From Psychroflexus maritimus (lineage in GTDB: Bacteria; Bacteroidota; Bacteroidia; Flavobacteriales; Flavobacteriaceae): 64,000 bases of DNA. The DNA is taken from NCBI RefSeq assembly GCF_011089875.1, contig NZ_JAANAS010000001.1, positions 1 to 64,000 of the forward strand. The letters run 5' to 3'. This document shows positions 4,164-51,746 of the stretch, in pieces. Each line of letters begins with the position of its first letter. Position 1 is the first letter of the stretch. Under the pieces are notes generated by a model. It saw nothing but the letters and a program-made list of their open reading frames with translations, did no database searches and was not told the DNA's origin. The position numbers and the translations under genes are program-made.

Positions 4164-4330
4164 ATTCCGGATAAATTTCTAGGAAATTTTCCGGAATGAC
4201 AGTTCAATGAGGATGGGGAAATTTTTGCGGTATGACAGGTTAATGAGGGTATTGGAAATTTTTTGCGGTGTGACAGGTTTACAAGGCTGTTGGGGAATTT
4301 TCCGGAATGACAAGTTAATAATAGGGGTTT
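4164..4330. repeat. Degenerate tandem repeats carrying GGAATGACA-type motif
   Basis: An imperfect palindrome (ATTCCGG at 4164-4170 to CCGGAAT at 4191-4197) is followed by GACA. Then come three more degenerate units, beginning near 4217, 4254 and 4294. Each has the pattern GGAAATTTT, then (C/G)CGG, then a TGACA-like end and a TTAATGAGG-like tail. The period drifts from 35 to 40 bases. Related palindromes occur at 41495-41534 and 43660-43713. Confidence 0.6.
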
Positions 4331-14916: not shown

Positions 14917-15115
14917 AATTTATACTAAACAATAGCAATCACTTTAACTATATTCAGAAAGAAACAGAAGTTAATAACTAATAGGCCGCTAAAATAACTC
15001 CGTAAATAAATTAAAAACTCAAATGCTTTTAACTGATGCAGAGGCAATTAATTTAAAAAAAATCAACAAGAATTAAAATTGCTTAAAATTCATTAAATTT
15101 TCTTTAAGTAAAGGA

Positions 15116-15146
15116 TTTGCAGGCTACAAAAAAGTATTATATTTGC
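15116..15146 (+). promoter_or_regulatory. Promoter of tRNA-Lys
   Basis: TTTG (15116-15119), an 18-base spacer and TATATTTGC (15138-15146) match the Bacteroidota sigma-A consensus. The tRNA starts 12 bases later. Confidence 0.8.
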
Positions 15147-15157
15147 CAACTCAAAAT

Positions 15158-15230
15158 GATCTGGTAGCTCAGTTGGTAGAGCATCTCCCTTTTAAGGAGA
15201 GGGTCCTGGGTTCGAGCCCCAGCCAGATCA
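15158..15230 (+). tRNA. tRNA-Lys (anticodon TTT)
   Basis: The cloverleaf is complete: acceptor GATCTGG/CCAGATC, D arm GCTC/GAGC, anticodon stem TCTCC/GGAGA with loop CTTTTAA, T arm CTGGG/CCCAG and discriminator A. CCA is not encoded. Its last 15 bases (15216-15230) are also the first 15 bases of the 105-bp tandem repeat. Confidence 0.97.
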
Positions 15231-15635
15231 CTTTTCTTACCTCTGAAGTTGATGGGCGAAAAGTTTATCCCGTGATAGATTTCAAGGAAACGCAGTGACC
15301 ATAGAAATCTTATACGGGAAGCCCCAGCCAGATCACTTTTCTTACCTCTGAAGTTGATGGGCGAGAAGTTTATCCCGTGATACATTTTAAGGAAACGCAG
15401 TGACCGTAGAAATCTTATACGGGAAGCCCCAGCCAGATCACTTTTCTTACCTCTGAAGTTGATGGGCGAGAAGTTTATCCCGTGATAGATTTCAAGGAAA
15501 CGCAGTGACCATAGAAATCTTATACGGGAAGCCCCAGCCAGATCACTTTTCTTACCTCTGAAGTTGATGGGCGAAAAGTTTATCCCGTGATAGATTTCAA
15601 GGAAACGCAGTGACCGTAGAAATCTTATACGGGAA
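15216..15635 (+). repeat. Four exact-length tandem copies of a 105-bp unit founded on the tRNA-Lys 3' end
   Basis: Units start at 15216, 15321, 15426 and 15531, and the repeat phase ends at 15635 before a truncated GCCC. Each contains the 15-base 3' end of tRNA-Lys (GCCCCAGCCAGATCA), a constant linker with ACCTCTGAAGTTGATGGGCG, and a long hairpin: TCCCGT plus AGATTTC paired with GAAATCT plus ACGGGA around a 20-base loop with GAAACGCAGTGACC. Units differ at only a few positions (A/G in GGGCGARAAG, A/G in ACCRTAG, and two changes in the unit 2 stem). No spacers are present. No protein is encoded. Confidence 0.95.
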
Positions 15636-15776
15636 GCCCGCTATCTAAATTACACAGCCGTTTGTTTTAAGGCGATAGAATTATACAACTAAACTCTTTC
15701 AGAGCTTTTTCTCATTGATGTGACGAAAGTTACTTATAGAGAAGAATAGTGTTTTTAAGTTTGTATCAAAAAACAA

Positions 15777-48667: not shown

Positions 48668-49894
48668 TTATCTTCTACCTCCAGATCTACCTCCACCAGA
48701 GCGCATTCCTCCAGAACTTCTCATACCGCCTCCAGAAGAGCGCATACTTCCTGAGCTTCTACTCGGTGAACTAGTTTTAATTGATGATCTAGTACGTGTA
48801 CTTTTATTTGTCTTTCTAACATTACTTCTATTGGTAGATCGGACAGAGCTTCTATTTATATTGCCACGCGAAGTTGCTCTAGCATTTACACTTCTAGGGT
48901 TTCTTACACGACTAACATTTCCTCGTGTTGCTCTTGTATTAGCTCCTCTTACATTAGAACCACGTGTATTTCCTCTTACAGTAGAGCCTCTAGTATTTCC
49001 TCTTAGGTTTCTACTTCTAGAAGTTCCTCTAACCCCAGCTTGACGTGTAGTTGATGTACCTCGTATATTTCTATTTGAACGTGTTGCATTATTATTAGAA
49101 CGGACACTTTGATTACTTCTCACACCTTGAGAACGACTTCCGTTTCTGCCTTGATTTGAGCGAACATCAGATCGATATCCATTAGAAGCAACAGAACTTC
49201 GGTAACGTTGTCCAGATAAACCTGCTCTTCCATTTCTATAGGTTCTATGATAAACTCCAGCATAATAGCCTCCTCCATAGTAACCACCCCAACCAGGACC
49301 GTAGTAACCACCTCCCCAGCCCCAACCAGGGCCATAGAAGCCACCGCCCCAGCCAAAACCAAAGCCTCCGCCCCAGCCCCAACCAGGACCGTAAAAACCG
49401 CCCCAGCCCCATCTAGGGCCATAGAAACCACCGTAACCCCAACCAGGACCCCAAAATGGATCATAGAAGCCGCCACCCATCACATTGACGGTAACGTTAG
49501 AACCAGCACTCCCCCAACCAGGATTAGCTGCAGCCTGACCACCTAAGTCGTCATAATATACTTCATCTTCATAATAATAATCATCTTGTTGTTGCGCAGG
49601 TCTTCCTTGTACGTTATTGTTGCCGTTGTCAACCCCTCTAGCTTGAGAAATTTGCTGACTTTGCTCACCAAAATAATTAGAATAATCTGTGTTGGTAGTT
49701 GTGCTACCTGAAGATTGCTGAACTCTTGGCTGACTCGAAGCCATTTGCTGTTCGTTGGCAGGGGTTGACCTGCTACCGTATATACCATCATTGGCTCCTA
49801 CATTGTGATAAGAACCACAAGAAGACATAAAAACCACGGTAACGACGCCCATACCGAGCGCTTTTAAATTTGTTTTAAGATTGTTGAATAACAT
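48668..49894 (-). CDS. Low-complexity lipoprotein: Gly/Trp/Tyr repeats then Arg/Ser/Asn repeats
   Basis: The 408-residue lipoprotein signal ends VVFMSSC. Residues 30-125 are Gln/Ser/Asn-rich. Residues about 140-215 are repeats of GGFYGPGWGWGG, almost only Gly, Trp, Tyr, Phe and Pro. Residues about 225-370 are Arg/Asn/Ser/Thr repeats (RGNTRGSTVRGNTRGSNVRG) and the end is SSGGGMRSSGGMRSGGGRSG. Similar proteins stand next to proS in flavobacteria and have been auto-annotated as vitellogenin-like, without function. The reverse strand gives long false frames. Confidence 0.82.
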   Translation of the reverse strand: MLFNNLKTNLKALGMGVVTVVFMSSCGSYHNVGANDGIYGSRSTPANEQQMASSQPRVQQSSGSTTTNTDYSNYFGEQSQQISQARGVDNGNNNVQGRPAQQQDDYYYEDEVYYDDLGGQAAANPGWGSAGSNVTVNVMGGGFYDPFWGPGWGYGGFYGPRWGWGGFYGPGWGWGGGFGFGWGGGFYGPGWGWGGGYYGPGWGGYYGGGYYAGVYHRTYRNGRAGLSGQRYRSSVASNGYRSDVRSNQGRNGSRSQGVRSNQSVRSNNNATRSNRNIRGTSTTRQAGVRGTSRSRNLRGNTRGSTVRGNTRGSNVRGANTRATRGNVSRVRNPRSVNARATSRGNINRSSVRSTNRSNVRKTNKSTRTRSSIKTSSPSRSSGSMRSSGGGMRSSGGMRSGGGRSGGRR

Positions 49895-51562: not shown

Positions 51563-51634
51563 GGTCCGTTCGTCTAGTGGTTAGGACGCCAGGTTTTCAT
51601 CCTGGTAACAGGGGTTCGATTCCCCTACGGACTA
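51563..51634 (+). tRNA. tRNA-Glu (TTC), copy 1
   Basis: Acceptor GGTCCGT/ACGGACT, anticodon stem CCAGG/CCTGG with loop TTTTCAT (anticodon TTC), T stem GGGG/CCCC, discriminator A. No encoded CCA. Confidence 0.97.
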
Positions 51635-51655
51635 CAAATATTGAAGAAAATCAAG

Positions 51656-51727
51656 GGTCCGTTCGTCTAGTGGTTAGGACGCCAGGTTTTCATCCTGGTA
51701 ACAGGGGTTCGATTCCCCTACGGACTA
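51656..51727 (+). tRNA. tRNA-Glu (TTC), copy 2, identical to copy 1
   Basis: All 72 bases equal those of copy 1, 21 bases apart. It probably arose by local duplication. The rpsT ATG follows 19 bases later, so one transcript may carry all three. Confidence 0.97.
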
Positions 51728-51746
51728 CAAAAAAAAGAAAATTGAA

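What the first reader, a model, noticed from the sequence alone, without database searches (positions are those of the whole stretch)
15216..15635. 4 x 105-bp tandem array nucleated on the 3' end of tRNA-Lys
Seen: four units of exactly 105 bases, phase starting 15 bases before the tRNA 3' end, so each unit carries a copy of the tRNA-Lys 3' end (GCCCCAGCCAGATCA) plus a long hairpin. Units differ at only a handful of sites, so the array is young or homogenised. Established: tRNA 3' ends are favoured integration sites for tyrosine-recombinase elements. Inference: the array could be a ladder of duplicated attachment sites, a relic of repeated element insertion and excision, a processed RNA with four tRNA-end decoys, or simple slippage. 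No integrase is in the window.
Basis: partly seen in the sequence, partly recalled or inferred. Interest (0 to 1): 0.7.

Follow-up and report, generated by a model that had tools for sequence, protein, structure and literature searches.

The report
tRNA-end hairpin repeats in Bacteroidota
Behind a lysine tRNA gene, this marine bacterium carries four copies of a small hairpin joined to copies of the tRNA's tail, and the same kind of unit, matched each time to its own tRNA, sits behind many tRNA genes in related bacteria, which points to a little-noticed family of small insertions tied to tRNA genes.

Summary
The array is real: four 105-bp units behind tRNA-Lys, three ending in a 16-nt copy of the tRNA tail (the fourth keeps only GCCC). 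It is not a private slippage event. Each unit holds an element E: a left arm resembling the reverse complement of the host tRNA's 3' end, a conserved unpaired core (GAGAAGTTTA), a variable hairpin, RA, then the tRNA tail from position 59. E occurs behind Lys, Trp, Gln, Met, Leu, Ile, Thr, Gly, Asn and other tRNAs. In a capped genome scan, a core 15-mer lies within 500 bp behind a same-strand tRNA at 51 of 66 Bacteroidota loci and 0 of 46 loci from other phyla. Its arms covary with the host tRNA. At tRNA-Trp and tRNA-Gln, related genomes show sites with and without E. G·T pairs outnumber A·C pairs 51 to 6 on the tRNA-sense strand, so that strand (RNA or ssDNA) probably folds. About half the loci have a predicted terminator between tRNA and E. 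My reading: a small non-autonomous hairpin element that rebuilds the tRNA end on insertion, then amplifies in tandem. The mobilising enzyme is not found; an RNA role is not excluded. No Rfam family matched; my literature searches found no description.

The parts
15158..15230 (+). tRNA-Lys(ttt); the repeats copy its end from position 59, just after the T-loop TTCGA
15231..15241 (+). spacer after the tRNA (CTTTTCTTACC), repeated in every unit; differs from the spacer of the second tRNA-Lys of this genome
15242..15257 (+). left arm of unit 1 (TCTGAAGTTGATGGGC), imperfect reverse complement of the tRNA 3' end
15258..15267 (+). conserved unpaired core of unit 1 (GAAAAGTTTA; family consensus GAGAAGTTTA)
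15268..15320 (+). variable hairpin of unit 1 (TCCCGTG...ACGGGA) plus the A before the tRNA-end copy
15321..15336 (+). first downstream copy of the tRNA-Lys end (GCCCCAGCCAGATCAC)
15337..15441 (+). unit 2: spacer, left arm, core (15363-15372), hairpin, tRNA-end copy 15426-15441
15442..15546 (+). unit 3: spacer, left arm, core (15468-15477), hairpin, tRNA-end copy 15531-15546
15547..15639 (+). unit 4, truncated: core 15573-15582, hairpin, then only GCCC (15636-15639) of the tRNA end

Best explanation
The array is a tandemly amplified member of a Bacteroidota family of small hairpin elements (E) tied to tRNA 3' ends. Shown: E has a conserved unpaired core between two covarying stems. The outer stem is closed by a left arm matched to the host tRNA and by the tRNA's own 3' tail (from position 59). 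E lies on the tRNA strand at varying distance behind the tRNA, and related genomes differ by presence or absence of E plus a duplicated tRNA tail. Inferred: a folded single strand in tRNA sense (ssDNA exposed in replication, or a transcript) is recognised through the core by an enzyme acting in trans. One junction is made at T-loop position 58/59, so the tRNA is rebuilt with a full 3' end. Recombination between the tRNA-end copies then expands or contracts the array (here to four). The enzyme is not identified.
For: Same-strand tRNA within 500 bp upstream of the 15-mer core at 51 of 66 Bacteroidota loci, 0 of 66 upstream on the opposite strand, 0 of 46 in other phyla. tRNA-Trp locus, 25 genomes: 11 have the tRNA directly followed by AAATCTTA; in G005, G016 and G013 that flank follows the distal tRNA-end copy. 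tRNA-Gln: G004 lacks E; the near-identical flank in G024 holds E between two copies of tRNA tail plus terminator. Second tRNA-Lys of the same genome: one E between 29-bp direct repeats with its own local flank. Covariation: 53 double-change cells against 17.4 sd 6.0 in shuffles, 0 of 500 as high. Left arms fit their own tRNA end better than shuffled ends (307 of 336 inner pairs; shuffle mean 289.9, maximum of 2000 = 298). Strand asymmetry G·T 51, A·C 6. Arrays of 1-5 closely similar units.
Against: No trans-acting enzyme co-localises. Of the 8 fetched integrase neighbourhoods only L452 holds E units, with an integrase gene about 1.2 kb past the second tRNA-Lys array. No Y1 transposase was found in G002 and G011, which carry E arrays (G002 is a 90% complete draft). 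Hairpin payloads are not significantly more alike within a genome than between genomes (p 0.11), so recent transposition between tRNAs is not shown. Two of the covariation measures are only mildly above shuffles: pairs with a double change 6 against 4.7 (80 of 500 as high) and further pair types 16 against 13.7 (32 of 500). The core was used to find the units, so its conservation is inflated; a GAGAAGCCTG form exists. Length of the duplicated flank varies (0 to about 60 nt past the tRNA), unlike a fixed target-site duplication. Precise loss by recombination could also give the sites without E. Outer-arm complementarity is weak for Trp and several Met and Thr units.
Confidence: 0.45

Rival explanations
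1. RNA function: the units are transcribed with the tRNA and fold into T-arm/acceptor-like minihelices ending in the tRNA 3' end, acting as processing substrates, decoys or released small RNAs, as rtT RNA does at E. coli tyrT (recalled).
For: Single units fold better than shuffles in 6 of 7 tested (z -2.5 to -5.0; L073 z -0.2). The tRNA-sense strand carries the G·T pairs. 48 of 94 tRNA-spacer cases have no predicted terminator before E. In L082 E sits behind tRNA-Ile between 16S and 23S rRNA, where read-through is expected.
Against: 46 of 94 cases have a predicted intrinsic terminator between the tRNA and E (my own simple detector). E is absent at most tRNAs of the same genome (5 of 34 have it) and absent at the same tRNA in many relatives. 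No transcript data.
Confidence: 0.2
2. Passive amplification: an old palindrome behind the tRNA, tandemly duplicated by replication slippage at short homologies (CGA-GCCC in the T-loop, GAA-GCCC in E), with arm complementarity maintained by quasipalindrome template switching; no dedicated enzyme, no function.
For: E ends in RA-GCCC, microhomologous to the T-loop. Arrays are tandem and locally homogenised. Duplicated flank length varies. Sites without E can arise by precise recombination.
Against: The same core recurs behind many tRNAs across the phylum, always with the tRNA on the same strand when one lies upstream, which drift does not predict. Template switching predicts perfect Watson-Crick arms, not an excess of G·T over A·C.
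Confidence: 0.2
3. GIY-YIG endonuclease units that share the niche drive the amplification: cleavage in tRNA genes followed by recombination at short homologies, as published for the phage enzyme SegB (PMC13096335, passages read).
For: In the fMet array of G006 (L117) and in the orphan fMet-end array of G013 (L371) GIY-YIG units and an E unit adjoin. GIY-YIG genes behind tRNA-Phe, Asn and Ala form repeated units, and one behind tRNA-Arg a single unit, that carry tRNA fragments.
Against: Of 27 GIY-YIG loci that could be placed (3 of 30 were too short) only 3 have a tRNA within 450 bp upstream. The window array and the Trp, Gln and Lys units read contain no such gene. By eye the GIY-YIG units lack the GAGAAGTTTA core.
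Confidence: 0.1
4. Ladder of attachment sites left by repeated integration and excision of a tyrosine-recombinase element.
For: tRNA 3' ends are classic integrase targets (established knowledge). Orphan arrays without a tRNA (L079, L092, L120, L371) look like displaced tRNA flanks.
Against: No PF00589 gene in the window. The unit recurs across the phylum and has its own two-stem structure. No cargo between copies in the window.
Confidence: 0.05

Closest known systems
E. coli tyrT repeats / rtT RNA (recalled; 178-bp repeats carrying the last 19 bp of tRNA-Tyr)
   Same: Tandem units behind a tRNA gene, each with a copy of the tRNA 3' end
   Different: Known to me at one tRNA of enterobacteria; no Rfam RtT match here even at E-value 10. 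Here the unit recurs behind many tRNAs and its left arm covaries with the host tRNA
REP/BIME palindromes with RAYT (Y1) transposases (PMC3733652, abstract in the listing and passages read)
   Same: Short imperfect hairpin with a conserved unpaired motif at its 5' foot; small, gene-free; sometimes tandem
   Different: REPs carry GTAG or CGTC tags and lie as singlets, dimers or groups over the genome; E carries GAGAAGTTTA, is tied to tRNA ends on one strand and repeats the tRNA tail. No Y1 gene found in two genomes that carry E
Integron attC sites and cassette arrays (recalled)
   Same: Outer stem, unpaired spacer, variable terminal hairpin; the stem is completed by sequence of the next unit; tandem arrays from a primary site
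   Different: No integron integrase over the TIGR02249 cut-off in 27 genomes, no cassette genes in the E units read, folded strand is the tRNA-sense one
tRNA-targeting integrative elements (recalled)
   Same: Insertion at the tRNA 3' part with a restored tRNA end and a direct repeat
   Different: Repeat period of roughly 57 to 190 bp in the units read, no integrase, variable flank duplication, own covarying structure
SegB-driven segmental amplification (PMC13096335, passages read)
   Same: Tandem repeats that include tRNA sequence, expanded through short homologies
   Different: Phage system amplifying whole tRNA genes with an endonuclease gene in the unit

Membership tests
E. coli rtT RNA (Rfam RtT) | match to the Rfam covariance model | tested here: not met
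   cmscan of 15100-15760 at E-value up to 10: only tRNA and a weak mascRNA match on the tRNA itself; 12 other E loci at gathering cut-offs: only tRNA and rRNA
E. coli rtT RNA (Rfam RtT) | tandem repeats carrying the tRNA 3' end | tested here: met
E. coli rtT RNA (Rfam RtT) | processed transcript | not testable with these tools
   no transcript data
REP/RAYT repeats | GTAG or CGTC tetranucleotide at the hairpin foot | tested here: not met
   consensus foot is GAGAAGTTTA; tags as described in PMC3733652
REP/RAYT repeats | Y1 transposase in the genome | tested here: inconclusive
   24 of 27 genus genomes have PF01797 at E up to 0.001; none found in G002 and G011, which carry E
REP/RAYT repeats | hairpin dispersed over extragenic space in both orientations | tested here: not met
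   51 of 66 Bacteroidota loci behind a same-strand tRNA, 0 of 66 behind an opposite-strand tRNA
Integron cassettes (attC) | integron integrase | tested here: not met
   TIGR02249: 0 of 27 genomes over the cut-off; 26 have weaker matches
Integron cassettes (attC) | folded single strand with unpaired spacer and variable terminal hairpin | tested here: inconclusive
   two covarying helices around an unpaired core; recognition not testable
tRNA integrative element | restored tRNA end with direct repeat and an unoccupied site in relatives | tested here: met
tRNA integrative element | integrase gene in or beside the element | tested here: not met
   no PF00589 match in the window; one of 8 fetched integrase neighbourhoods (L452) holds E, about 1.2 kb away
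GIY-YIG tRNA units | GIY-YIG gene within the unit | tested here: not met
   E units of the window and of the Trp, Gln and Lys arrays read hold no gene

The most novel reading that the evidence does not exclude
A Bacteroidota-wide class of miniature mobile elements that uses the universally conserved T-loop (TTCRA, junction at 58/59) as its entry point, carries a tail that rebuilds the invaded tRNA, and closes its recognition hairpin with the tRNA's own 3' strand, so that each copy becomes matched to its host tRNA. One version would have the tRNA 3' end copied through a reverse-transcribed intermediate that stops at position 58, as retroviral primer tRNAs do at m1A58 (recalled).
Probability: 0.3. 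Interest if true: 0.85.

Novelty: new variant of a known kind. Interest (0 to 1): 0.66.

Why it matters
tRNA 3' ends are the best-known landing sites of bacterial mobile DNA, but through integrases and large islands. A gene-free unit of roughly 60 to 190 bp that sits behind many different tRNAs across Bacteroidota, leaves the tRNA gene full-length and covaries with it would be a new way of living on tRNA genes. It also makes a testable case of DNA or RNA hairpins whose partner strand is supplied by the host gene, and it explains otherwise puzzling tRNA-end repeats that could break assemblies and confuse tRNA and attachment-site annotation in this phylum.

Tried and rejected
Private slippage: rejected, since the unit recurs in relatives. 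Ordinary phage or plasmid origin: the 20 phage hits listed of 1266 cover only the tRNA part of the 503-bp query, plasmids gave 3 weak partial hits, and none of the 80 viral loci examined of 84 has the core within 700 bp behind a tRNA. Rfam: no family besides tRNA and rRNA, apart from a sub-threshold match on the tRNA itself. Integron: no integrase over cut-off; of eight fetched tyrosine-recombinase neighbourhoods only L452 holds E units; the remaining core-like strings there, found with up to two mismatches, show no tRNA-end copy in what was printed, and the repeat array between tRNA-Arg and integrase in L448 is an unrelated A+T-rich repeat. Y1 transposase: no consistent link. Transposition between tRNAs within a genome: payload similarity within genomes not significant, p 0.11; between genomes at the same tRNA p 0.051. 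GIY-YIG genes as general companions: only 3 of 27 placed loci have a tRNA just upstream, fewer than the tandem examples I had picked suggested. NCBIfam has no model for the one GIY-YIG protein tried. Literature: the listings showed no description of such repeats in Bacteroidota; most listed papers were not opened, and the library lacks most subscription papers. Phylum sample: 65 of 395 genomes match a 16-mer with up to one mismatch, but most of these hits were not inspected and many may be chance.

Full report
WHAT IS THERE. The window array is confirmed: 15215-15639, period 105, 4.0 copies, 97% matches, no indels. It starts inside tRNA-Lys(ttt), 15158-15230. Exact 16-nt copies of the tRNA end lie at 15321-15336, 15426-15441 and 15531-15546; the fourth unit keeps only GCCC at 15636-15639 and then runs into unique DNA. 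One unit folds with -27.8 kcal/mol, z -2.5, 3 of 200 shuffles as good.

IT IS NOT PRIVATE. The same genome (2.59 Mb, 126 contigs) has a second tRNA-Lys with one unit. There the DNA between tRNA and hairpin is different, and it is repeated after the hairpin together with the tRNA end, as a 29-bp direct repeat around an insert of about 77 bp. E units also follow tRNA-Met (C82; C39 begins inside a similar array), a second tRNA-Met (C60, core with two mismatches) and tRNA-Leu(tag) (C93, two units) of this genome. So 5 of its 34 tRNA genes are followed by E, counting the two Lys. The genus is Psychroflexus: genome G005 has a contig of 342,083 bases, as does the record of P. tropicus DSM 15496. The 105-bp unit matched at E up to 0.01 in 9 of 60 genomes, the own genome included, and four of the nine (G005, G006, G023, G033) only through short pieces of 19 to 27 bp. 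The core pattern with up to two mismatches matched in 24 of 27 genus genomes; the reversed control pattern gave 0 to 2 hits per strand and genome, several genomes have no more hits than that, and some two-mismatch hits are chance, in coding DNA.

ANATOMY. Across loci the unit reads: tRNA tail from position 59 (just after T-loop TTCRA), spacer, left arm, GAGAAGTTTA, hairpin beginning mostly TCC and ending mostly GGR, A, then again the tRNA tail. Units were found by searching for the core with at most one substitution, so its conservation is inflated; a GAGAAGCCTG form occurs in L127 (Lys), L462 and L110 (Gln). On 56 of these 62 (6 with shifted boundaries dropped by me) the two helices hold 92.9% of cells against 83.5% in shuffles, with 53 cells changed on both sides against 17.4 sd 6.0 (0 of 500 shuffles as high); sliding the partner by 1 to 3 columns gives 3 to 18 such cells. 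Two other measures are only mildly raised: pairs with a double change 6 against 4.7 (80 of 500 as high), further pair types 16 against 13.7 (32 of 500). Relatedness inflates such counts, and the composites are short. The inner four letters of the left arm follow the host tRNA: GGGC with GCCC (Lys, Gln, Met, Asn), AGAC with GTCT (Ile, Leu), GGAC with GTCC (Thr, fMet), GGGT with ACCC (Gly), mostly TGGC or AGGC with GCCT (Trp). Of 152 cores within 450 bp behind a tRNA, 118 had a recognised tRNA-end copy after the hairpin; in these the four inner positions pair, G·T included, in 117, 115, 111 and 92 cases. Over 84 locus-tRNA combinations, shuffling tRNA ends lowers inner pairs from 307 of 336 to 289.9 (maximum of 2000 shuffles 298), and outer ones from 362 of 840 to 313 (maximum 361). 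The outer arm is good for Lys, Ile and His and weak for Trp and several Met and Thr units.

WHICH STRAND FOLDS. In the eight pairs, G·T cells number 51 and A·C cells 6, against 73.2 and 28.0 in shuffles; without the pair next to the tRNA copy they number 35 and 6. An A·C on the tRNA-sense strand is a G·T on the other strand, so the tolerated wobbles lie on the tRNA-sense strand. This favours a single strand in tRNA sense, RNA or ssDNA, over a cruciform or the opposite strand.

HOW FAR IT REACHES. By record title I placed 66 loci in Bacteroidota, 46 in other phyla and left 6 unclear. A same-strand tRNA lies within 500 bp upstream in 51 of 66, 0 of 46 and 3 of 6; no opposite-strand tRNA lies within 500 bp upstream in either large group; 9 of 66 have a same-strand tRNA within 500 bp downstream. 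Of the 15 Bacteroidota loci without a tRNA, several are cut by the stretch or contig end just before the core or keep tRNA-end pieces, and L138, L139, L219 and L229 look like chance matches. Carriers by title include Christiangramia, Salinimicrobium, Salegentibacter, Mesonia, Flavobacterium, Indibacter, Cyclobacterium, Algoriphagus, Phaeodactylibacter, Terrimonas and Bacteroidales MAGs. It is sparse in the phylum as a whole: with up to one mismatch of a 16-mer, 65 of 395 sampled genomes match, most hits uninspected.

GAIN OR LOSS AT A SITE. tRNA-Trp is followed by a gene that I read as secE (not searched). Of 25 genomes, 11 have the tRNA directly followed by AAATCTTA. G005, G016 and G013 have one, two and four tRNA-end copies with E, and the same AAATCTTA flank follows the last copy. 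G006 and G023 also have E with tRNA-end copies; G009 has a core without a recognised tRNA-end copy; G011 a tRNA-end copy without a recognised core; the other 7 have other flanks and neither. At tRNA-Gln, 24 loci were fetched and 23 could be read: 6 have tRNA-end copies; G004 has no copy and no E in 330 bp, and G024, with nearly the same flank, has E after the terminator with tRNA tail and terminator repeated after it. So one junction is at T-loop position 58/59 and the other lies 0 to about 60 bases past the tRNA in the cases compared. These comparisons show precise presence or absence; they do not show direction, since recombination between the repeats would remove E cleanly.

TRANSCRIPTION. 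Of 94 distinct tRNA-spacer cases, 46 have a predicted terminator between tRNA and first E, by my own simple detector; all 10 Asn, 5 Gly(tcc) and 10 Met cases do, none of 7 Trp, 2 Ile and 6 Thr cases does. In L082 E sits between tRNA-Ile and 23S rRNA. So some E copies should be transcribed and many probably are not. Seven units were folded: six have z -2.5 to -5.0 and one (L073) -0.2 (one further fold was a wrong stretch).

WHO MOVES IT. Unknown. Y1 transposases occur in 24 of 27 genomes but were not found in G002 or G011, which carry E. No genome passes the integron-integrase cut-off. Of eight fetched integrase neighbourhoods, only L452 holds E units, with an integrase gene about 1.2 kb past the second tRNA-Lys array. 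Small GIY-YIG genes form a second kind of tRNA-linked unit (see Noticed in passing) and adjoin E units at fMet ends in L117 and L371, but of 27 placed GIY-YIG loci only 3 have a tRNA just upstream. Hairpin payloads are not significantly more alike within than between genomes.

READING. I take E to be a small non-autonomous hairpin element tied to tRNA ends. Its recognition structure is closed by the tRNA's own tail, and its insertion leaves a full-length tRNA gene. The array in the window is a tandem expansion of one such unit; the near identity of its copies fits recombination between tRNA-end repeats. The RNA reading stays open because of the strand asymmetry; passive amplification stays open because the second junction varies. 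Searches of the open library showed no description in their listings; of the papers listed I read passages of PMC3733652 and PMC13096335. The E. coli tyrT/rtT precedent, attC anatomy and the m1A58 stop of retroviral primers are recalled.

Noticed in passing
L371 (G013:C34:5500-11500), L379, L382, L384, L378, L390: Small GIY-YIG endonuclease genes in units behind tRNA-Phe, Asn, Ala and fMet ends, several in tandem (periods about 364-382 bp in L371, L379, L382); several unit ends carry a fragment of the tRNA interrupted by a short G+C palindrome. L371 shows eight GIY-YIG matches in a row, starting from an fMet 3' half without its 5' half.
   Followed up: partly
L383 (G013:C23:113500-116600): About three tandem GIY-YIG units lie before an intact tRNA-Arg(acg) and carry tRNA-Arg 5' pieces interrupted by long palindromes, so 5' parts of tRNAs are also copied.
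   Followed up: no
L374 and L375 (G000:C49, C93): In the window's own genome GIY-YIG genes follow tRNA-Arg(tct) and tRNA-Asn and end in palindrome-interrupted tRNA pieces.
   Followed up: no
L081, L082, L122, L123: E units directly behind tRNA-Ile; in L082 this is the 16S-23S spacer of an rRNA operon.
   Followed up: partly
L079, L092, L120, L078: Orphan E units with Met or Leu tRNA-end pieces but no intact tRNA beside them, perhaps tRNA flanks displaced by an integrated island.
   Followed up: no
L446, L447, L448, L450: Tyrosine recombinases of about 390-620 aa that score about 109-134 bits against the integron-integrase model, below its cut-off of 265; such matches occur in many genus genomes, several near contig ends. 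In L448 an A+T-rich array with AATGTACATTA motifs lies between tRNA-Arg and the integrase.
   Followed up: partly
window 51563-51728: Two tRNA-Glu(ttc) genes in a 93-bp tandem duplication, 100% matches.
   Followed up: no
window 4182-4319 and 49287-49450: Two further tandem arrays, units of 38 bp and about 30-33 bp.
   Followed up: no
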